64,000 nucleotides of DNA from Caldimonas mangrovi. Lineage in GTDB: Bacteria > Pseudomonadota > Gammaproteobacteria > Burkholderiales > Burkholderiaceae_C. Of the stretch, positions 30,712 to 46,917 are shown one piece after another (within the stretch, counting starts at the first letter, position 1; each line of letters opens with the position of its first letter). The position numbers were made by a program, and so were the translations under genes. The DNA lies in the NCBI RefSeq assembly GCF_023721835.1, contig NZ_JAMKFE010000014.1:95472-159471 (forward strand). Direction: 5' to 3'. Under the pieces are notes generated by a model. That model saw only the letters and a program-made list of their open reading frames with translations. It was not told where the DNA came from and searched no databases.

Positions 30712-31365
30712 TCAGAGTTGGAACGGCCGCAGCGCGAGTTGCACCGCCATCCACAACATGACGCCGGAAATGGCGGCATCGATGGCACGCCACACCGCCG
30801 GCTGGTGCAGCCAGCGAGAGGCGACCGCCGCACCGAAACCCAGCACCGAGAACCACAGCGCCGAGGCCAGTCCCGCTCCGCCGACGAAGGCCACGCGCGC
30901 CTCGCCGACATGCTGAGCGCCGAGCGTGCCCATCAGCACGACCGTGTCGAGATAGACATGCGGGTTCAGATAGGTCATGGCCAGCGTCGCGGCCAGCGTC
31001 GGCCCCAGCTGTTGCACCGAGCCGGCGGCCGCCAACGCCTCGGCCGGCCCTGTCCAGGCGCGCCACGCCGAACGCACGCCGTAGAGCAGCAGGAAGGCCG
31101 CACCTGCATAGCGGCAGACCTCTAGCCACACTGGCGAGCGCGCAATCACCGCGCCGAGCCCGAACACGCCGAGCGCCGTCAACAGCCAATCGGAGACAGT
31201 GCACAGCGCCACCACCGGCCACACGTGCCTGCGCGCCAGCCCCTGGCGCAGCACCAGGGCGTTCTGAGCGCCGATCGCGACGATCAGGCCGGCCATCGTC
31301 AACAAGCCTTGCATGCCGGCAGCGCCGACGACTTGCGGATTGGAGATCGCTTCGCTGGGAATCAT
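30712..31365 (-). CDS. argO: ArgO/LysE-type basic amino-acid exporter
   Basis: A 217-aa inner-membrane protein with about six helices. GLLTMAGLIVAIGAQNALVLRQGLARRHVWPVVALC is the characteristic LysE/ArgO N terminus (GPQN-like GAQN). In Escherichia coli and Corynebacterium such proteins export arginine, canavanine or lysine. It faces an ArgP-like LysR gene across a 72-bp interval, the classical ArgP/ArgO pair, which supports the name. An internal ATG at 31314 is an alternative start closer to the family's normal N terminus. Confidence 0.88.
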   Translation of the reverse strand: MIPSEAISNPQVVGAAGMQGLLTMAGLIVAIGAQNALVLRQGLARRHVWPVVALCTVSDWLLTALGVFGLGAVIARSPVWLEVCRYAGAAFLLLYGVRSAWRAWTGPAEALAAAGSVQQLGPTLAATLAMTYLNPHVYLDTVVLMGTLGAQHVGEARVAFVGGAGLASALWFSVLGFGAAVASRWLHQPAVWRAIDAAISGVMLWMAVQLALRPFQL

Positions 31366-31424
31366 CCGGCGATTCTGCTGCGGGCACCGAGTCGATGAAG
31401 CTGCATGAATATTTTTCGTCTAAC

Positions 31425-31439
31425 ATTAGTGTCACTAAT
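31425..31439. promoter_or_regulatory. Perfect palindrome overlapping the argP start
   Basis: ATTAGTG (31425-31431), one central T, CACTAAT (31433-31439). The last two bases are part of the chosen ATG at 31438-31440. It is a likely autoregulatory ArgP/LysR site or a sign that translation begins elsewhere. Confidence 0.55.
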
Positions 31440-32364
31440 GCAAAGCATCGACCCCGCTACGCTTGAATGCCTGGCTGCCCTGGTGGACGAAGGCAGCTTC
31501 GAACGCGCCGCCGCGCGCCTGTCCATCACGCAGTCGGCCGTGTCGCAGCGGCTGCGCGCGCTGGAAGCTTCCGTCGGGCAACCCGTGGTCGTGCGCGCGC
31601 GCCCGCTGCGGCTCACCGAGCCGGGCAAGGTGCTGCTGCGCTTCGCGCGCCAGTGGCAGGCGCTGCGCGCCGATGCGGAACGCGAACTCGAAACTGCCGC
31701 GCGGCCCGATGAGCGGCTGCCGATCGCCGTGAACGCAGACAGCCTGGCAACCTGGGTGCTGCCGGCGCTCGACCCGCTGGTGCAGGAAGGCGTGTCGCTC
31801 GAACTCATCGTCGACGACCAGGACTTCACGCACGAATGGCTGCGCCAAGGCGCGGTGCTCGGGTGCGTCACGACCGTCGGGCAGGCGCTGCGCGGCTGCC
31901 GGGTCGCGCCGCTGGGCGTGATGCCGTACATCGCGGTGGCCAGCCCGCGCTTCATCGAACACGAACTGCCGCGCGGGTTGCACCGCGGCAATTTCGCACA
32001 GACACCGTTCCTCGTCTTCAACCGCAAGGACGACATGCAGAACCGGTGGGTCTCGCGTGCGTTCGACTTGCGGGCGCCGCGCCTGCGCGAGCGCTTCGTG
32101 CCGTCGTCCGAGGCTTACGTGCACGCCGCCCGCATGGGCTGGGGTGTCGGCGTGGTGCCGGTCGTGCAGGTGCAGCCCTGGCTGGACAGCGGCGAGCTGG
32201 TCCCCGTCCTTGCCGACGTGAGCCTGCCGGTCGCGCTGTACTGGCATCGCTGGAAACTGGGCGACGACCAACGGCCAGGCGATCTGATCGGCCGCATCGG
32301 TGACGCGCTTGTCGAAGGCGCACGCGCGGTGCTGCAGCCCCTGGGCGCCGAGGCGGCCGCATGA
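31438..32364 (+). CDS. argP: LysR-family regulator ArgP-like
   Basis: A 308-aa LysR regulator close to ArgP/IciA. LECLAALVDEGSFERAAARL and SITQSAVSQRLRALE match the ArgP helix-turn-helix closely. The effector domain shows NADSLATWVLPAL, TTVGQALRGCRVAPLGVMPY and the late GWGVGVVPVVQVQPWL. ArgP senses lysine or arginine and activates the exporter gene. ATG 31438 aligns with the family start, but an in-frame ATG at 31405 would place the palindrome inside the gene. It is divergent from argO. Confidence 0.9.
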   Translation: MQSIDPATLECLAALVDEGSFERAAARLSITQSAVSQRLRALEASVGQPVVVRARPLRLTEPGKVLLRFARQWQALRADAERELETAARPDERLPIAVNADSLATWVLPALDPLVQEGVSLELIVDDQDFTHEWLRQGAVLGCVTTVGQALRGCRVAPLGVMPYIAVASPRFIEHELPRGLHRGNFAQTPFLVFNRKDDMQNRWVSRAFDLRAPRLRERFVPSSEAYVHAARMGWGVGVVPVVQVQPWLDSGELVPVLADVSLPVALYWHRWKLGDDQRPGDLIGRIGDALVEGARAVLQPLGAEAAA

Positions 32365-37224: not shown

Positions 37225-37538
37225 GTCGCTTCGCCACATCCGAAGCGGCGCGCCATCAGCCTCCGAAGACTCGTAGTTCCGGGCGCCAGGGCGGCCCGGG
37301 TCGGGGCTGTCCGGCAACACCACCACGCCCCGGCCCGGTACGAGCCCGCCCACGAAGACGCAGTCGTCGATACGGCGCCCGGCAGCATCGCTACGCGTCT
37401 TCGTAGCTTGTTGCCGACGCGAGCCTCGGGGAATATCCGGCACCCACCGTGATGTGAACGGCCGCTTCCTTCGATCGTCACCCTCGATCGGGCGAAGCAC
37501 CGGTTGCCTCGGCCAGGACTCATTTGCCGGAGTACCCG

Positions 37539-38288
37539 ATGAGCCTATGCCCGCATGCCGCCCCGTCGCCCGACTACACCGAGCAGATCCTCGAAGGCGC
37601 CGGCGACGACGATTACGCGCGCTACATGCGCACCGACGCCCTGCTTTCCCTGCAACGGCGGCCGGAAGACATGGTGCATCGCGACGAACTGCTGTTCCAG
37701 ACGGTCCACCAGTCGACCGAGCTGTGGCTCAAGCACGCCTGCTTCGAGCTGCTGGCAGTGGACCAAGCCATGGCGGACCGGCAGGTCGAACCTGCCGTGC
37801 GCCTGCTGCGACGCGCGGTGCTGGCGGTGGAGTTGTTGACCCAGCAGCTCGAGATGCTGCGTCACCTGCCGCCCTGGGACTTCCAGACGTTGCGCACGGC
37901 CCTCGGCCACGGCTCGGGTTTCGACTCGCCGGGGTGGCGCCAGGTGCGCACGCTGACGCCCAAGCTGGGCCGCAGCTTCGACGAACTGATGGCCCACCAG
38001 CAGACCACCCTGCGCGACGTCTACACGGGAGCCCCCCATGACGGCTTGTTCCGCCTGGCGGAGTCGCTGCTCGACTGGGACGAGGCCATCGCGCTGTGGC
38101 GCACGCGGCACTACAAGCTGGCGCTGCGCGTGAACGGGCATGGCGCGGTGACGACGCAGGGGCGCACCGTCGACGTCCTTGCGAAGCTGGTGGCGTCGCG
38201 CTTCTTCCCGGCGCTGTGGGACGTGCGCAGCGAGCTGACCGCGATGGGCCCGATGGGCCACCGGCAGGCGTCGGAGGCCGGTTTGTGA
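37539..38288 (+). CDS. Tryptophan 2,3-dioxygenase-like heme protein A, divergent
   Basis: A 249-aa protein of the tryptophan dioxygenase superfamily, shorter than KynA (about 280-300). DDDYARYMRTDALLSLQ, HRDELLFQTVHQSTELWLK (F53, H57 as in KynA) and DFQTLRTALGHGSGFDS (F115 replacing the usual Tyr, R119 kept) are clear. The axial heme ligand is H191 in ALWRTRHYKLALRVNG. The following GTGGSSG substrate loop of true KynA is replaced by HGAVTTQG. ATG 37539 has GGAG at 37529-37532. It starts a tightly coupled cassette. Heme binding is likely; the substrate may be a modified indole. Confidence 0.85.
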   Translation: MSLCPHAAPSPDYTEQILEGAGDDDYARYMRTDALLSLQRRPEDMVHRDELLFQTVHQSTELWLKHACFELLAVDQAMADRQVEPAVRLLRRAVLAVELLTQQLEMLRHLPPWDFQTLRTALGHGSGFDSPGWRQVRTLTPKLGRSFDELMAHQQTTLRDVYTGAPHDGLFRLAESLLDWDEAIALWRTRHYKLALRVNGHGAVTTQGRTVDVLAKLVASRFFPALWDVRSELTAMGPMGHRQASEAGL

Positions 38289-39532
38289 TCATGCCGGTGC
38301 GCGGCCGCCTGGACGCGGCCGGCTTCCGCACCTGGTTTCCCGGGCTGCGCGACAGCACCTATCTGGCGAGCTGCAGCCTGGCTGCACGCCATGCCGGGTG
38401 GGATGCGGCCTGGGCCGAGATGCTCGACGAAGTGCACCGCAGCGGCACGCCCTGGAGCGCCTACGAACACAAGGTGGATGCGGTGCGCCGGCGGGCGGCC
38501 GCATTGCTCGGCGCCCGCGCGGCCCAGATCGGCCTGATGCCGAACGCGAGCATCGGCGCCTACCAGGTGGCCTCCACGCAATCGTTCGAGGACAGGCCTC
38601 GCATCGTCAGCACGGCAGACGAGTTCCCTTCGGTGTCTCACGTGTGGCTGGCGCAGCGCAGCCGGGGCGCGCAGGTGGTGCACGTGCCGCAGCACCTCGG
38701 GGACGAAGACGAGACCCTGGCGCACTGGAGCGCAGCCATCGACGAACGTACGGCACTCGTCTCGGTGCCGCTGGTGTCGTACCGCACTGGAGCCGTGCTG
38801 CCGGTGCGGGCGATCGCGGCCCGCGCACGCCGGGTGGGAGCACGGGTGTTCGTCGATGCGTACCAGGGGGCCGGTGTCCTGCCGGTGGATGTCGCTGAAC
38901 TCGGTTGCGACTACCTCGTCACGGGCACCTGCAAGTACCTGCTGGGCGTGAGCGGTTTGGCGTTTCTCTACGCCGCAGATGGCGCCGGCGGCCTCGAGCC
39001 CAGCCTCACGGGGTGGATGGGTCGTGTCTCGCCGATGTCGTTCGACCCCTGCCGGCTCGACTTTCCCGACGAGGCACGACGCTTCGAAACCGGCACGCCC
39101 GCCATGCCGGCGGTGTATGCGGCCGATGCCTCGATGGGCCTGCTGCAGGCGTGCGGGGCCGCCGAGATACGCGACCACGTGCTGCACCTGGTGCGCCGCA
39201 CCGACGCGCGCCTGCGCGAAGCCGGCGAGCGGCTGGCGTTGCCGCACCCGCAGCCGGGCCCGATGGTGGCGCTGCTCGACGCGGACCCGGCCGCGCTCGC
39301 GAGCGGGCTGGCAGTGCGGGGGGTGCATGTGAGCCCGCGCGCGAATGCGGTGCGCATCTCGTTCCATTACTACAACGACGAAAGCGACGTCGATGCACTG
39401 GTGGAGGCGCTGCGCCTCTGTCGCCGGGAGGCCGGCCGAGCGGCCGCAGCACAGGGAGTCCCATCACAAGGAGTATTGCGTGACGATCGACACCCGGATC
39501 GACAGTTGGCGGGGCGGACCCTTCCCCCATGA
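38285..39532 (+). CDS. Class V PLP-dependent enzyme, kynureninase-like
   Basis: A 415-aa aminotransferase-class-V fold protein. TYLASCSLAARHAGWDAAW opens the fold; FVDAYQGAGVLPVDVAELGCDYLVTG precedes the Schiff-base lysine in TCKYLLGVSGLAFLY, the order seen in kynureninases. RFETGTPAMPAVYAA is the following substrate loop. The GTG at 38285 overlaps the upstream stop (GTGA) and has GGAGG at 38273-38277; ATG 38291 is the alternative. Its 3' end overlaps the next gene by 53 bp. Cleavage of a kynurenine-like product is the obvious guess, but canonical KynU identity is not claimed. Confidence 0.85.
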   Translation: MIMPVRGRLDAAGFRTWFPGLRDSTYLASCSLAARHAGWDAAWAEMLDEVHRSGTPWSAYEHKVDAVRRRAAALLGARAAQIGLMPNASIGAYQVASTQSFEDRPRIVSTADEFPSVSHVWLAQRSRGAQVVHVPQHLGDEDETLAHWSAAIDERTALVSVPLVSYRTGAVLPVRAIAARARRVGARVFVDAYQGAGVLPVDVAELGCDYLVTGTCKYLLGVSGLAFLYAADGAGGLEPSLTGWMGRVSPMSFDPCRLDFPDEARRFETGTPAMPAVYAADASMGLLQACGAAEIRDHVLHLVRRTDARLREAGERLALPHPQPGPMVALLDADPAALASGLAVRGVHVSPRANAVRISFHYYNDESDVDALVEALRLCRREAGRAAAAQGVPSQGVLRDDRHPDRQLAGRTLPP

Positions 39533-40691
39533 CGAGGTGCTGCAGGAGTACTGGCGGGTCGGCAAGCACTTCGTTGCGCCCTCGGTGTTGCAGGCGCTGG
39601 CGCGCGTGCGCGAACTGCTGAGAAACGACGCCGGGGTGCGCGCCCGCCAGCGCGGGCTGCTGGAGTTTCTCGACGTCGCGCTGGACAAGCACGACGGCAG
39701 CTACGACTACCGCAGCTACCTGGCGCTGCCGCTGCTGGCCGTGCCCTATGGCGACGCTTACCGCGGCCGGCCCGAGGCGGCGGCCTCCCAGCGTGATCGC
39801 CTGCTGGCGCTGCTGGTCACCGACCTGCTGGATTTCGAGCTGCGTGCGCTCGATGCGCAAGCGGTGCCGCTGCCGCAGATGCGGGCCGATCCGGCGCTGG
39901 TGGCCAAGCGCTGCCGGCTCGGGCTGCGTGCGCTGGCGCCGGCCCTCCGCAGGATGGGCCGCGTGCCTGACGTCGGCGAGCACATCGACGCCTGCGCCCG
40001 CGCGTGGGCCACCTGCAGCGCCGTGCGCGAGACGATGCGGCCCGAGGAAGCCCTGATGCTGCGCACCACGATGCTGCCGGTTTACACCTTGCACGACGAA
40101 TACCTCTTCCTGCGCGTGCTGCAGTCGTTCGAAACCTGCTTTTCCTTCATCTGCACCGGCCTTGAAGCGGCGATCGCCGCCGTGCACGAGGGCATGGCCG
40201 ATGACGCGTGCGCCTGCCTGGAGCAGTGCGATGCAGCGCTGCAGGAGGCGGCCCCGCTGTTTTCGATGATGGCGACGATGCGGGTCGACGCGTTCCGGGT
40301 GTTCCGGCAGTACACCGAGGGCGCCAGCGCGATCCAGTCGCGCGCCTACAAGCGGCTCGAGGCGCTGTGCTCGCGCCCGCACCCGGAGCGGCTCGATTCG
40401 CCGGGATACCGCTCGGTGCCCGAATTGCGGGCGCAGATCGGCGATGGGTGGCACAGCCTGCAGGGCGCCTGCGATGCAGCGCACCGGTCGCACCGCTTGT
40501 CGGCGGGCGACCTCGCCGCGCTGCGGCGCCGCATGGCGGCGTTCGAGGATCGCGTGCTCGCATGGCGCAAGACGCACCACGGGCTCGCGGTGCGCATGCT
40601 CGGGCCGGCCAGCGGCACCGGCTACACCGAAGGCACGCCGTATCTGCACGCGGTGATGACCGAGCGCCTGTTCGCCGCTCCGATGGCGTAG
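39480..40691 (+). CDS. Tryptophan 2,3-dioxygenase-superfamily protein B, long form
   Basis: A 403-aa protein. Residues 1-180 are a helical region I cannot place. Residues about 195-403 follow the tryptophan dioxygenase pattern: LHDEYLFLRVLQSFE (205-219, catalytic His position replaced by L214), DAFRVFRQYTEGASAIQS (F272, R276) and WRKTHHGLAVRMLGPASGTGYTEG (axial H366, GTG loop at 379-381). GTG 39480 has AAGGAG six bases upstream. Loss of the distal His but retention of heme and carboxylate residues suggests a different heme chemistry from KynA. It is the last gene of the cassette. Confidence 0.8.
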   Translation: MTIDTRIDSWRGGPFPHDEVLQEYWRVGKHFVAPSVLQALARVRELLRNDAGVRARQRGLLEFLDVALDKHDGSYDYRSYLALPLLAVPYGDAYRGRPEAAASQRDRLLALLVTDLLDFELRALDAQAVPLPQMRADPALVAKRCRLGLRALAPALRRMGRVPDVGEHIDACARAWATCSAVRETMRPEEALMLRTTMLPVYTLHDEYLFLRVLQSFETCFSFICTGLEAAIAAVHEGMADDACACLEQCDAALQEAAPLFSMMATMRVDAFRVFRQYTEGASAIQSRAYKRLEALCSRPHPERLDSPGYRSVPELRAQIGDGWHSLQGACDAAHRSHRLSAGDLAALRRRMAAFEDRVLAWRKTHHGLAVRMLGPASGTGYTEGTPYLHAVMTERLFAAPMA

Positions 40692-40700
40692 CGCCTGCCG

Positions 40701-41642
40701 TCAGGGCGGGAAGCCCGGCGCCAGCATCTCGCGCAGGTAGCCGACCAGCGCCTGTACTGCGCGCGGCACCACCGGGCTGTACGGGCGGATCGCGTAGATG
40801 CGCTCGCCGAAGGCGCCCACCGGGCGCCAGCCTGGCAGCACCGGCTGCAGGCGTTTCGCGCGCAGGCTCGCCTGCGCACTGAAGTCGGGCAGCACTGCGA
40901 GGCCCAGGCCGTCGAGCACGGCCTCGCGCAGCACCTCGCTGTTGTTGGCCGCGAAGCTGCCGCGCACCGGCACCGTCACACGCTGCGCCTCCGGCCGCTG
41001 GCCGCCCTCGGGCACAAAGGACCAGCTGGGCGTGTCGCCCGGGCGCAGGTAGTGCAGGCAATCGTGCTGCGCCAGCGCCTCGGGCGAGTCGGGCAGGCCG
41101 CGCCGGCGCAGGTAGGCGCGGCTGCCGACCAGCCACGAGCGGGTCTCGCACAGCACCCACGCCACGTGGGTGTCCGGCGCGGCCGCCGTGTGGCGGATCG
41201 CGAGGTCATAACCCTCCTGGGCCAGCGGCATGATGCGATCAGCGAGGTCCAGCTCGATGCGCACCTCCGGGTGGCGGCGCAGGAAGTCGCCCAGACGCGG
41301 CACGATCTGCTGCCGGCCCAACGCGACCGGCGCGGTCACGCGCACCAGGCCGCGCGGCGCGCCGGCCAGGTCCTTCACGCCGGCGAAGCTGCGCTCGATC
41401 TGCTCGAAGGCCTCACGCGTGGCGTCGACCAGTTGCTGGCCGGCTTCGGTGAGCCGCACCGAGCGTGTGGTGCGCAGCACCAGCGGCACGCCGGCCGCGC
41501 GCTCGAGTTCGGCGATGCGCTGGCTCATCGCTGCCTTCGAGACGGCCAGCCGCTGCGCCGCCGCCGTGTAGCTGCCGTGACGGGCCAGCACGCCGAGCGC
41601 GTGCAAGTGCGACCACCAGGCCTGGATCCGGGCGCCATCCAT
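40701..41642 (-). CDS. LysR-family regulator of the neighbouring aldehyde dehydrogenase
   Basis: A 313-aa LysR regulator (helix-turn-helix [21 protein letters not shown]; effector domain with [18 protein letters not shown] and [19 protein letters not shown]), of the CrgA/AaeR-like branch. It is divergent from the methylmalonate-semialdehyde dehydrogenase gene, with a perfect 22-bp inverted repeat between them. It converges on the dioxygenase cassette, so it probably does not control that. Confidence 0.92.
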
Positions 41643-41667
41643 CGTCTGTCTCCAAAGTAGCGACCCT

Positions 41668-41689
41668 ATTGTTCACCATACTGAACAAT
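41668..41689. promoter_or_regulatory. Perfect operator-like palindrome in the lysR-mmsA interval
   Basis: ATTGTTCA (41668-41675), CCATAC spacer, TGAACAAT (41682-41689). It lies 26 bp upstream of the lysR start and 82 bp upstream of the mmsA start, where LysR binding is expected. Confidence 0.65.
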
Positions 41690-41770
41690 GAAGTCAGCTT
41701 TCCGGTCTTGGACGCGGCGGGTCCGACGCCTAGACTGCCCTCATCGCAGACCGACTCGAAGGAGACCGCC

Positions 41771-43288
41771 ATGGGCGCAGCCGACCCGCACCTCGCCACC
41801 ACCGTGCAACACTGGATCGACGGGCGGCTGGTGGCCGGCCGCAGCGGCCGCCAGCAGGACGTGTACAACCCGGCCACCGGTGAGGCGGCCCGCCAGGTGT
41901 CGCTGGCGTCGGCCGACGAGGTGAACGCCGCCGTGGCGGCCGCCAAGGCGGCGTTCCCGAAGTGGGCCGATACGCCGCCGATCCGGCGTGCGCGCGTCCT
42001 CAACAAGTTCCTCGAATTGCTGAACACCCACCGTGACACGCTGGCCGCCCTCATCACCAGCGAGCACGGCAAGGTGATCACCGATGCGCAGGGCGAGGTC
42101 ACGCGCGGCATCGAGATCGTGGAGTTCGCCTGCGGCATCCCGCAGCTGCTGAAGGGCGACTACACCGATCAGGTCTCGACCGGCATCGACAACTGGACGC
42201 TGCGCCAGCCGCTCGGCGTGGTGGCCGGCATCACGCCGTTCAACTTCCCGTGCATGGTGCCGTGCTGGATGTTCCCGGTGGCGCTGGCGTGCGGCAACAG
42301 CTTCGTGCTGAAACCCAGCGAGCGCGACCCGTCGGCCTCGCTGTTGATGGCCGAGCTGCTGAAGCAGGCCGGCCTGCCCGACGGCGTGTTCAACGTCGTG
42401 CAAGGCGACAAGGTGGCCGTCGACACGCTGCTCGAGCACCCCGACGTGAAAGCGCTCAGCTTCGTCGGCTCGACGCCGATCGCGCACTACATCTACGAGC
42501 GCGGCGCCCATTTCGGCAAGCGGGTGCAGGCCCTCGGCGGCGCCAAGAACCACATGGTGGTGATGCCCGATGCCGACCTCGACCAGACCATCGACGCGTT
42601 GATCGGCGCCGCGTACGGCTCGGCCGGCGAGCGCTGCATGGCGATCTCGGTCGCGGTACTGGTCGGCGACGTGGCTGACAGGATCGTGCCGAAGCTCGCC
42701 GAGCGGGCGCGCGCGCTGAAGATCGGCAACGGCATGGAACCCGACGCCGAGATGGGGCCCCTCGTGACGCGCCAGGCACTCGACCGCATCTGCGGCTACA
42801 TCGACGACGGCGTCAAGAGCGGCGCACAGCTGGTGGTCGACGGCCGCGGCCACAAGGTGTCAGGCCACGAGAACGGCTTCTGGCTCGGCGGCACGCTGTT
42901 CGACCATGTGACACCGGACATGCGCATCTACCGGGAAGAAATCTTCGGACCGGTGCTGGCTTGCGTGCGGGTGCCGGACTTTGCGGCGGCCGTCGAGCTG
43001 GTCAACGACCACGAGTTCGGCAATGGCGTGGCCTGCTACACGCGCGACGGCCATGTCGCGCGCGAGTTCGCACGCCGTATCCAGGTCGGCATGGTCGGCA
43101 TCAACGTGCCCATCCCGGTGCCGATGGCCTGGCACGGCTTCGGCGGCTGGAAACGCAGCCTGTTCGGCGACATGCACGCCTACGGCGAAGAGGGCGTGCG
43201 CTTCTACACCAAGCAGAAGTCGGTGATGCAGCGCTGGCCTGAAAGCACGGCCAAGGGCGCCGAGTTCGCGATGCCGACGGCGAAGTGA
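41771..43288 (+). CDS. mmsA: Methylmalonate-semialdehyde dehydrogenase (CoA-acylating)
   Basis: A 505-aa aldehyde dehydrogenase. The CoA-acylating MmsA group is shown by the N terminus [35 protein letters not shown], the catalytic Cys in [14 protein letters not shown] and [17 protein letters not shown], with [19 protein letters not shown] at the end. It converts methylmalonate or malonate semialdehyde to propionyl- or acetyl-CoA in valine, beta-alanine or inositol breakdown. AAGGAGA lies at 41758-41763. The companion 3-hydroxyisobutyrate dehydrogenase is absent here. Regulation by the divergent LysR is inferred. Confidence 0.95.
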
Positions 43289-44379: not shown

Positions 44380-46917
44380 ATGGGCGCCAGAGAAAAAATC
44401 GGCACGGTCCTGGACTTGCACACCTGCTATGGGGTGTACAACGGGTTCGTGCTGACCAAGACCGGGTCGCTGATCGGCGCCATCGAGCTGACGGGGCGTG
44501 ACCCCAACGGCATGGCGCCGATCGACCACCAGGGTCTGATGCGCATCGTGCGGGTGATCTACAGCAAGCTGCCCAAGGACATCTCGATCACGCAGTACTA
44601 CTCGCATTTCGAGGGCGCCAAGGTCAGCCTGCGGCCGCGCGAGCATCCCATCAGCAACCTGATGTCACAGCGGCGCGAGGCCTACCTGAACAGCCGCGGG
44701 CTCTGCAACTCGCGGCTGATCCATTACTTCGAGATCCAGGCGCCGGAAAACTCCACCAAGCTCGACATCCCGGGGCTGATCAAGCACCTGGCGATGTCAC
44801 CGGTGAGCCCGGCCAGCCGGCGCATGGTCAAGCAGGTGATCTCCAAACAGGGGGCCCTGCTGTTCATCGCCGACCAGCTCGAGCGCCAGTCCTGGGCACT
44901 GAAAGACGCCCTGTCGGTCATCGAGACCAAGTGGTCCGGCATCATGGGTGCACGCCAGCTCGGCATCGAGGAGCTGTGGGCTCACATGCGCTTCCTGGCA
45001 ACGCTGCAGCCGCGCCGTCTCGACACCGCCATGCAGGAGACGCTGCCGGAAAGCAACTGGGACCACTTCATGACCAGCGGCGACGTGCGCCACATGCGGG
45101 TGGCCAACATGGACGTGCTGAAGGTCGACGACACCGAGCACCAGTACGTCAAGATCGGCGCCATCAGCCGGCTGGGCAACCCGGTGCGCGAGGGTCTGTG
45201 GGGCAACGGCGACGATGCGCCGGTGCACCTGCGCGGCAACTACCTGCTGATGCACCGCTTCACGCCGTTCACCGAGTTCAAGCGCTCGATGCTGTTCCAC
45301 AGCAAGCAGACCGAGCTGGAGCGTAGCGCGTTGAACCCCTGGGACGTGCTGCAGGGCCGCGAGCGTTCGCTCTACGAAAAACAGATGACGATGAAGCCCG
45401 CCATCGCCCAGAAGATCGAGGAGCTCGGCGAGGCCGAGGCGCTCGACGAGGTCTGGGGTCAGGGCCATGCCTTCGTCGCGGCATTCCATCAGAACCCGGC
45501 CAAGCTGCGCGATATGGTGCTGTCGCTCGACCGCGCCTGCTCCAATGCCGGCATTTCGGTGGTCTGGGAAGGCGTGGACCTGCCCTATGCCTACCAGACC
45601 ATCCAGCCGGGCGGGCAGCACAAGAGCATGCGCGACATCGTGATGAATGCCACGCAGAGCGCGGCCGCCTCGCTGGTCTACCAGAGTTCGCTGGGTCAGC
45701 CCTTCGTCGAGGACCTGGGCAACGAGGAAGCCCAGTACATCCTCGAGAGCAACGACGGCCGGCCGTTCTTCTACAGCAATTTCATCGGCGGACGCGCGAT
45801 GCTGGTCGGCATCGGCCCCATCCGCAGCGGCAAGACCTTCCTGAAGAACACGCTGGCGACGCACTTCCTGAAGTACGGTGGCGTCATCCGCGCCATCGAC
45901 ATCGACCCTGGCACCGAAACGCTGGCGCAGGCCTTCGGCGACGATGGCGGCATCTTCCGTGTCACGGCCGACGGCGCGCACGGCCTGAACCCCTTCGTCA
46001 ACTACCAGGGCGACGGCGACATCGGCTTCATCGTGCACATGACCGAGCTGCTGATCGAGATGATGCGGGCCAACGACGACCCGCTGCTGCAGACGCTGGC
46101 GCACAACGAGCAGGAGTACCTCGACGGTGCCATCCGCAAGACACTGCTGCTGCCCCCCGAGATGCGCACGCTCGACTCGCTGGTCGCGCACATGCCGATG
46201 CAGCTGGCGCAGAAGTTCACGCGCTGGACGCGCGGCAACGACCCGCAGATGGCCGGCCGCTACGCGCCGCTGTTCGCAGCCCAGCAGGACTCGGCCGGTG
46301 GTCTCGACAAGCGTGTGGCGGTCTACAACCTGCAGGCAGTGCGCGACGACGAAAACGGCATGCGGCCTTTGCTGCTGGAACTGTTCTATCGCATCACGCG
46401 AGCCTTCGAGGACCCGCGCCGGCGCGGCATCCCGAAGGAACTGCACGTCGACGAATGCCACCACGCGCTGCGGCTGAAGGCCTTCGCCGACTACCTCGTC
46501 GCCAAGGTGCGCACCTGGGGCAAGTGGGGCGCCGGGGTGCAGCTGTGGACGCAGTCGCCGGAGGAACTGCTGCACAGCGAGAGCTGGGCTGCGGTGCGCA
46601 GTGCCGCCAGCACCTTCGTCTTCATGGCCGATCCCAAGATGGACCCGGACCTCTATCTCGAGACCTTCCCCTTCCTGCAGCACGGCGAGTGCGAGGCGAT
46701 CCGCGGGCTCATCCCCAAGCGGCAGGCCTTCATCGTGCAGCAGGAGCTGGGCGTGTCCAAGGTGGTCAACCTGAGCGTGGAGCCGGAGCAGTACGTGATG
46801 AACACGTCGCATCCGCGCGAGGCGGCGATCCGCACCGCGCTGATCGAGGAGCACGGCTACGAGCGCGGCATGCAGCTGACGCTGCAGCGCTTCCGCGAGG
46901 AAAGGATCCTCAAGTGA
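44380..46917 (+). CDS. VirB4-like secretion ATPase
   Basis: An 845-aa VirB4/TrbE-type ATPase. The N-terminal domain (about 1-430) includes LHTCYGVYNGFVLTKTGSLIGAIEL. The C-terminal motor has Walker A GPIRSGKT at 479-486 and Walker B KELHVDECHH with D691/E692, plus the later QLWTQSPEELLHS. VirB4 energises pilus assembly and substrate transport, usually as a hexamer on the inner membrane with VirB3. Length is typical (about 790-850). It is the best-supported marker of a type IV secretion-like locus here. The next gene overlaps by 4 bp. Confidence 0.95.
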   Translation: MGAREKIGTVLDLHTCYGVYNGFVLTKTGSLIGAIELTGRDPNGMAPIDHQGLMRIVRVIYSKLPKDISITQYYSHFEGAKVSLRPREHPISNLMSQRREAYLNSRGLCNSRLIHYFEIQAPENSTKLDIPGLIKHLAMSPVSPASRRMVKQVISKQGALLFIADQLERQSWALKDALSVIETKWSGIMGARQLGIEELWAHMRFLATLQPRRLDTAMQETLPESNWDHFMTSGDVRHMRVANMDVLKVDDTEHQYVKIGAISRLGNPVREGLWGNGDDAPVHLRGNYLLMHRFTPFTEFKRSMLFHSKQTELERSALNPWDVLQGRERSLYEKQMTMKPAIAQKIEELGEAEALDEVWGQGHAFVAAFHQNPAKLRDMVLSLDRACSNAGISVVWEGVDLPYAYQTIQPGGQHKSMRDIVMNATQSAAASLVYQSSLGQPFVEDLGNEEAQYILESNDGRPFFYSNFIGGRAMLVGIGPIRSGKTFLKNTLATHFLKYGGVIRAIDIDPGTETLAQAFGDDGGIFRVTADGAHGLNPFVNYQGDGDIGFIVHMTELLIEMMRANDDPLLQTLAHNEQEYLDGAIRKTLLLPPEMRTLDSLVAHMPMQLAQKFTRWTRGNDPQMAGRYAPLFAAQQDSAGGLDKRVAVYNLQAVRDDENGMRPLLLELFYRITRAFEDPRRRGIPKELHVDECHHALRLKAFADYLVAKVRTWGKWGAGVQLWTQSPEELLHSESWAAVRSAASTFVFMADPKMDPDLYLETFPFLQHGECEAIRGLIPKRQAFIVQQELGVSKVVNLSVEPEQYVMNTSHPREAAIRTALIEEHGYERGMQLTLQRFREERILK

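What the first reader, a model, noticed from the sequence alone, without database searches (positions are those of the whole stretch)
37539..40691. Cassette of two divergent tryptophan-dioxygenase-superfamily proteins around a kynureninase-like PLP enzyme
Three genes overlap or abut (GTGA at 38285; 53-bp overlap at 39480), so they should be made together. Protein A keeps F53, H57, R119 and axial H191 but lacks the GTGGSSG substrate loop of KynA. Protein B has a 180-aa unknown N-terminal region, keeps the axial His (H366), R276 and a GTG loop, but the distal His position is Leu. A canonical kynurenine operon would have KynA, KynB formamidase and KynU; here no formamidase is present and two heme enzymes of different design flank the PLP enzyme. 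This looks like a dedicated route to a modified indole, anthranilate-like or other aromatic product. Sequence features are seen; enzyme family knowledge is established; the pathway is inferred.
Basis: partly seen in the sequence, partly recalled or inferred. Interest (0 to 1): 0.82.

Follow-up and report, generated by a model that had tools for sequence, protein, structure and literature searches.

The report
Likely tryptophan-to-isatin gene cassette
Three overlapping bacterial genes encode two divergent relatives of the heme enzyme tryptophan dioxygenase and a kynureninase-like enzyme; the same trio recurs in distant bacteria, often beside a relative of isatin hydrolase, so together they are predicted to turn tryptophan into an isatin-type compound rather than run the ordinary kynurenine pathway.

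Summary
A (37539-38288), P (38285-39532) and B (39480-40691) overlap as described. A and B pass Pfam's Trp_dioxygenase cut-off but fall far below NCBI's tryptophan 2,3-dioxygenase cut-off; P falls far below the kynureninase cut-off. The genome has a separate KynA-KynU-KynB set. B's 'unknown' N-terminal region is recognisable: the predicted model aligns along its length with PrnB and IDO. A's model is closest to MarE, a 2-oxindole-forming enzyme. In 80 loci fetched through B, the order A-P-B occurs in 33, from three phyla; 23 of those 33 carry a PF04199 protein of a family matching isatin hydrolase at 290 bits and kynurenine formamidase at 31 (nine-sequence profile). I had predicted that before looking. 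My reading: A and B oxidise tryptophan's indole to a 3-hydroxy-2-oxindole amino acid, and P cleaves it to isatin plus alanine. This is inference; no activity was tested, and the window lacks the hydrolase. Main rival: B is an indole-ring hydroxylase. None of my ten paper searches listed a paper recognisably about this cassette.

The parts
37539..38288 (+). Gene A: 249-aa single-domain heme-superfamily (HDAO) protein, TDO/MarE-like, keeps distal His57, Arg119, axial His191, lacks the GTGGSSG loop and the alphaF/alphaG segment of TDO
38285..39532 (+). Gene P: PLP protein (Aminotran_5), kynureninase-like by the TGW...GTP stretch; Lys217, Asp191, Arg357 aligned to the kynureninase residues
39480..40691 (+). 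Gene B: 403-aa two-domain HDAO protein, distal His replaced by Leu214, keeps Arg276, axial His366 and a GTG loop
39480..40019 (+). Part of gene B coding residues 1-180: predicted cap domain like that of PrnB and IDO (boundary approximate)
   Evidence: PrnB and IDO align over model residues 10/14-403, TDO only from about 164-184
40020..40688 (+). Part of gene B coding residues 181-403: TDO-like heme domain (boundary approximate)
37529..37532 (+). Shine-Dalgarno-like GGAG before gene A
   Evidence: read directly from the sequence
38273..38277 (+). Shine-Dalgarno-like GGAGG before gene P, inside the end of gene A
   Evidence: read directly from the sequence
39468..39473 (+). Shine-Dalgarno-like AAGGAG before gene B, inside the end of gene P
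   Evidence: read directly from the sequence

Best explanation
Three overlapping genes encode two divergent members of the heme tryptophan-dioxygenase superfamily (A and B) and a kynureninase-like PLP protein (P), which would likely act in series to oxidise the indole of L-tryptophan and then split off its side chain as L-alanine, releasing an isatin-type product. Proposed steps, all inferred: A (MarE/TDO-like) oxygenates the C2-C3 edge of the indole to a 2-oxindole amino acid; B (IDO/PrnB-like, distal His replaced by Leu) adds the second oxygen, giving 3-hydroxy-2-oxindolyl-alanine (dioxindolylalanine) or a ring-hydroxylated form of it; P forms the PLP imine and cleaves the Cbeta-Cgamma bond in a retro-aldol, so that C3 leaves as the ketone of isatin and the side chain leaves as alanine. 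In relatives with the larger cluster an isatin-hydrolase-like enzyme would then open isatin to isatinate, an alpha-keto acid that a class IV transaminase could turn into 2-aminophenylglycine for ATP-grasp ligases. In the window's genome no isatin-hydrolase-like gene was found, so isatin or a substituted isatin may be the end product there.
Against: No activity, heme or product was tested. By sequence A is nearer TDO than MarE (profile 132 against 62 bits), and it has neither GTGGS nor MarE's SLGGR loop; MarE itself favours dioxygenation without ascorbate (PMC12312684, passages). P scores higher against the SufS cysteine desulfurase family (99 bits) than against kynureninase (54 bits), both far below cut-off. 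In the isatin-hydrolase-like family one metal ligand, Gln219 of LaIHA, is Thr, and Trp59 is not kept, so its substrate may differ from isatin. Ten of 33 A-P-B loci, and the window, have no such gene in the stretch held (L008 is cut by its contig end and L010 is short). B occurs without A and P, and beside a canonical-looking TDO in Rhodobacteraceae loci, so B need not be tied to isatin. In the 20 A-B-P loci the PF04199 gene is absent, an O-methyltransferase match is present in all 20, and A's Arg119 is Gln in 18 and Lys in 2.
Confidence: 0.42

Rival explanations
1. B (or A) is a heme-dependent indole-ring hydroxylase like BifE of biffamycin biosynthesis, and the cassette makes a ring-hydroxylated, side-chain-cleaved product such as a hydroxyisatin or hydroxyanthranilate.
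For: BifE is described as a heme-dependent Trp C4-hydroxylase of a new sub-family of Trp 2,3-dioxygenases, working with an O-methyltransferase and a halogenase, with a Na/H exchanger gene in the cluster (PMC13285481, passages). B stands beside Na/H exchangers in L014 and L071 and near a halogenase, an exchanger-like and an NRPS gene in L079; 20 of 20 A-B-P loci carry an O-methyltransferase match.
Against: The sequence of BifE was not available, so kinship with A or B was not tested. It does not by itself explain the isatin-hydrolase-like gene, though it can be combined with the isatin route.
Confidence: 0.25
2. A private kynurenine branch: A dioxygenates tryptophan (or a modified one) to an N-formylkynurenine, P cleaves it to an anthranilate, B adds a further oxidation; the genomic KynB removes the formyl group.
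For: A keeps the TDO residues F53, H57, R119, H191 and is nearer TDO than MarE by sequence; P is kynureninase-like; KynB exists in the genome.
Against: A lacks the GTGGSSG loop; A and P fail the TDO and kynureninase equivalog cut-offs; the genome already has a full KynA-KynU-KynB set; the PF04199 gene of the related clusters is isatin-hydrolase-like, not KynB-like.
Confidence: 0.17
3. PrnB-like rearrangement: B carries out a ring rearrangement of tryptophan as PrnB does, and A and P act on that product.
Confidence: 0.07
4. The window's trio is a leftover of a larger cluster and has no working product here.
For: The flavin hydroxylase, class IV transaminase and PF04199 genes that accompany the trio in 24, 17 and 23 of 33 A-P-B loci, and in G127 of the same family, are not beside it.
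Against: All three frames are open with conserved active-site residues; close copies (92-95% identity) exist in other sequence records; Nocardia and Micromonospora loci also carry the trio without those genes in the stretch held.
Confidence: 0.06

Closest known systems
Canonical kynurenine operon (KynA, KynB, KynU)
   Same: A tryptophan-dioxygenase-superfamily enzyme and a kynureninase-like PLP enzyme encoded together.
   Different: 26% identity of A to the genome's KynA and of P to its KynU; two heme-superfamily proteins; no KynB beside them; A and P below the equivalog cut-offs.
MarE (2-oxindole-forming HDAO of maremycin biosynthesis)
   Same: Predicted fold of A, short connection where TDO has alphaF/alphaG, distal His, Arg and Phe (PMC11904535, passages).
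   Different: SLGGR loop not present; 22% identity over the structural alignment; A lies in an operon with P and B.
PrnB and IDO (two-domain HDAO enzymes)
   Same: B's predicted two-domain fold; the lack of a distal His in IDO is recalled.
   Different: About 9-15% identity in the structural alignments; B's heme domain is found by TDO in sequence searches.
BifE / heme-dependent tryptophan hydroxylases
   Same: TDO sub-family members used in natural-product clusters with O-methyltransferase and halogenase genes (PMC13285481, passages).
   Different: Not compared by sequence; BifE hydroxylates Trp without a PLP partner.
iad pathway of auxin (IAA) breakdown
   Same: An indole oxidised at its C2-C3 edge; earlier work cited there proposed dioxindole-3-acetic acid, isatin and isatinic acid as intermediates (PMC12633357, passages).
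   Different: Rieske-type oxygenase and IAA as substrate, not heme enzymes and an amino acid; that preprint itself reports a revised route.

Membership tests
HDAO / tryptophan-dioxygenase superfamily (A and B) | PF03301 match above the gathering score | tested here: met
   A 94.6 bits, B 51.2 bits, cut-off 34.9
HDAO / tryptophan-dioxygenase superfamily (A and B) | Axial His aligned to the TDO ligand | tested here: met
   H191 in A, H366 in B, invariant in the 61 and 77 aligned sequences
HDAO / tryptophan-dioxygenase superfamily (A and B) | Heme bound | not testable with these tools
   needs protein
Canonical tryptophan 2,3-dioxygenase (KynA) | NCBIfam equivalog TIGR03036 cut-off 390.7 bits | tested here: not met
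   A 122.9, B 62.2
Canonical tryptophan 2,3-dioxygenase (KynA) | GTGGSSG substrate loop | tested here: not met
   A has VTTQGRTVD; B has GTGYTEG
Canonical tryptophan 2,3-dioxygenase (KynA) | Distal His | tested here: inconclusive
   met by A (H57), not met by B (L214)
MarE-type 2-oxindole-forming enzyme (A) | No alphaF/alphaG segment | tested here: met
   26 residues in A where Xanthomonas TDO has 77 between the two aligned blocks; predicted helices
MarE-type 2-oxindole-forming enzyme (A) | SLGGR loop | tested here: not met
   loop is VTTQGRTVD; SLGGR from PMC11904535, passages
PrnB/IDO two-domain fold (B) | Cap domain plus helical heme domain | tested here: met
Kynureninase (P) | NCBIfam equivalog TIGR01814 cut-off 246.4 bits | tested here: not met
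   54.2 bits
Kynureninase (P) | PLP Lys, Asp, Arg and the GW stretch | tested here: met
   K217, D191, R357, T242-G243-W244 aligned to the genome's KynU; its Asn51 is Cys30 in P, Cys in all 36 A-P-B-type sequences
Isatin hydrolase (the PF04199 gene of related clusters, not in the window) | HxGTHxDxPxH and Asp/His pair | tested here: met
   invariant in the 9 sequences of A5, against residues listed in PMC6117287 (passages)
Isatin hydrolase (the PF04199 gene of related clusters, not in the window) | Metal ligand Gln219 of LaIHA | tested here: not met
   Thr at that column in 9 of 9
Heme-dependent tryptophan hydroxylases (BifE; Shi et al. 2023) | Sequence kinship with BifE | not tested
   no sequence at hand; in the L006 genome the Trp-halogenase family gave only one partial match, so no bif cluster was located there

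The most novel reading that the evidence does not exclude
A so far undescribed tryptophan-to-isatin pathway: two heme oxygenases of different architecture make dioxindolylalanine and a kynureninase-fold retro-aldolase releases isatin; as a mobile module it feeds natural-product clusters in three phyla, where isatin is opened and transaminated to 2-aminophenylglycine and ligated by ATP-grasp enzymes, or is varied with nitration and halogenation genes.
Probability: 0.3. Interest if true: 0.82.

Novelty: new variant of a known kind. Interest (0 to 1): 0.62.

Why it matters
If right, it gives a genetic basis for enzymatic isatin formation from tryptophan, adds a retro-aldol role to the kynureninase fold, pairs two heme-superfamily enzymes of different architecture in one pathway, and points to cryptic clusters that would make aminophenylglycine-type building blocks. 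Each step can be tested with single purified enzymes and a simple substrate. Even if the product is another one, the conserved trio flags genes that sources name 'tryptophan 2,3-dioxygenase' and 'selenocysteine lyase/cysteine desulfurase' and that are probably neither.

Tried and rejected
Rejected: the trio as the genome's kynurenine operon (separate KynA-KynU-KynB found); P as a plain cysteine desulfurase (its best NCBIfam score is SufS, but 99 bits where 475 are asked, and it shares kynureninase's GW stretch); the PF04199 gene of related clusters as KynB. First idea dropped: a quinolobactin-like xanthurenate route (recalled) with KynB and a kynurenine hydroxylase; the flavin hydroxylase of the clusters belongs to NCBI's PRK08132 subfamily (two members tested), and among the 60 of 88 solved relatives shown the best are rifampin monooxygenases and none is named a kynurenine hydroxylase.

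Led nowhere: a hydroxylase like BifE could not be compared by sequence; the L006 genome (Streptomyces albidoflavus NRRL B-1271) has further PF03301 matches but only a partial halogenase match. The heme hydrazine-synthase paper PMC12154649 (abstract and outline) and the paenidepsin paper PMC13036774 (passages) showed no link to the trio. Own-genome search with the isatin-hydrolase profile found only the KynB place at 20.9 bits. Absence of a family from the VIA lists was not used as evidence.

Paper searches (all ten used) listed no paper that by its title and start of abstract is about this cassette; most listed papers were not opened, and the library holds only open-licence PubMed Central papers, so this is weak evidence of novelty. 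From recall, not from a call: that kynureninase can carry out a retro-aldol on dihydrokynurenine, and that hydroxyphenylglycine is made by transamination of the matching glyoxylate.
Full report
What is there. In at least four relatives the called frames of A and P share a 4-bp overlap too (L005, L011, L024, L083). The next gene, a LysR regulator at 40701-41642, is on the other strand, and an aldehyde dehydrogenase follows at 41465-43288; neither looks like part of the unit.

What the proteins are. A and B both pass Pfam's Trp_dioxygenase threshold (94.6 and 51.2 bits, cut-off 34.9), but score 122.9 and 62.2 bits where NCBI asks 390.7 for a true tryptophan 2,3-dioxygenase. P scores 54.2 where 246.4 is asked for kynureninase, and 99.1 where 475.1 is asked for SufS. 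The genome's own kynurenine genes lie together on another contig: KynA at C1:102541-103341, KynU at 103443-104642 (313 bits, over its cut-off), KynB at 104905-105342. A is 26% identical to that KynA, P 26% to that KynU, and B's heme domain 24% to that KynA.

Conservation of the trio. One scan of genome contigs with the B alignment gave 107 confirmed places, of which 80 were kept. In these 80: A-P-B 33, A-B-P 20, A-B 7, one other (L074), and 19 with B but without a close A and P nearby (that last group includes L053, where A and P lie at the far end of the same cluster). The A-P-B loci come from Actinomycetota, Chloroflexota and Pseudomonadota (my reading of the titles). Among genomes related to the window's the B gene is rare: family 2 of 399, order 2 of 399, phylum 1 of 398, at E 1e-20 and each count including the window's own genome. 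Such a patchy spread suggests horizontal transfer (inference). One database protein, P0013, reads as the C-terminal part of P fused to B; a sequencing error there cannot be excluded.

Neighbours in relatives. In the 33 A-P-B loci a flavin hydroxylase occurs in 24, a class IV transaminase in 17 and a PF04199-type protein in 23 (from profile matches; families of sample members). ATP-grasp proteins are common: cluster c3 occurs in 18 of 80 loci, and the five members that I scanned are ATP-grasp. G127, of the window's own family, has B, flavin hydroxylase, transaminase, PF04199, A and P in a row. Other settings: a nitric oxide synthase gene in 4 of 33 A-P-B loci (L035, L042, L065, L077), a Trp-halogenase-like gene in L049, an O-methyltransferase match in 20 of 20 A-B-P loci.

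The test. Seeing A resemble MarE and P resemble kynureninase, I reasoned that two oxygenations of tryptophan would give dioxindolylalanine and that a kynureninase-like enzyme could cleave it to isatin and alanine, in which case the PF04199 gene should be isatin hydrolase and not KynB. It is nearer isatin hydrolase: 226 bits against 25 for kynurenine formamidase with one sequence, 290 against 31 with a profile of nine. The prediction was made before but written down only after it, so a reader must take my word for the order. The match is not perfect: Gln219, a manganese ligand of LaIHA, is Thr in 9 of 9, and Trp59 is replaced, while His69, His73, Asp75, His79, Asp193, His207, Trp61 and Trp80 are kept (alignments; residue list from passages of PMC6117287; the residues were placed by eye).

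Mechanism. Inferred: A and B oxidise the indole while the substrate is still an amino acid (both keep an Arg that in TDO binds the carboxylate; clusters with A, B and an NRPS but no P would use the amino acid whole), and P then removes the side chain. Precedent for P's chemistry, seen as passages only: PLP transaminases join L-alanine to isatin, the reverse reaction (PMC13397446). Oxindolylalanine and dioxindolylalanine are known tryptophan degradation products (PMC8228365, passages). Which of A and B acts first, and whether B works on the C3 position or on the benzene ring, is open; the BifE precedent (PMC13285481, passages) makes ring hydroxylation by B a serious alternative that can also be combined with the isatin route.

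Limits. The 80 loci were chosen by B, so the counts describe B's surroundings and not those of A or P. Gene calls in high-GC contigs were made by my own scripts and can miss starts or genes (B of L089 was hidden by an antisense frame). Contig ends cut some loci (L008, L010, L050). No heme binding, activity or product was tested.

Noticed in passing
L035:11020-12411, L042, L065, L077 (Micromonospora): A nitric oxide synthase gene follows the A-P-B trio, which suggests a nitrated tryptophan-derived product.
   Followed up: partly
L060, L068, L076, L080, L082 (Rhodobacteraceae): B sits near a canonical-looking TDO instead of an A protein (Pfam-tested in L060 only, 220.6 bits), with a LacI regulator in L060; no P or PF04199 gene in the profile scan.
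   Followed up: partly
L063:11324-12172 and similar Streptomyces loci (L064, L067, L070, L075, L081): B is followed by a very divergent TDO-like protein (weak match to the A profile; no Pfam match for the L063 copy) and an NRPS-type gene.
   Followed up: partly
L006:5222-6568 and 11 other loci (cluster c8): A conserved protein of about 460 aa upstream of A; the L006 copy has no Pfam match at E 0.001 and no NCBIfam match at 1e-12.
   Followed up: no
P0013 (metagenome protein): C-terminal part of P fused in frame to a whole B protein.
   Followed up: partly
L078:8084-8875 (Nocardia testacea): Gene A is split over two frames there; described only.
   Followed up: no
window 30712-31365 (-) and 31405-32364 (+): Divergent pair of a LysE/ArgO-type exporter and an ArgP/LysG regulator.
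   Followed up: no
window 44380-46917 (+): 845-aa protein with a weak TraG P-loop match below Pfam's cut-off.
   Followed up: no
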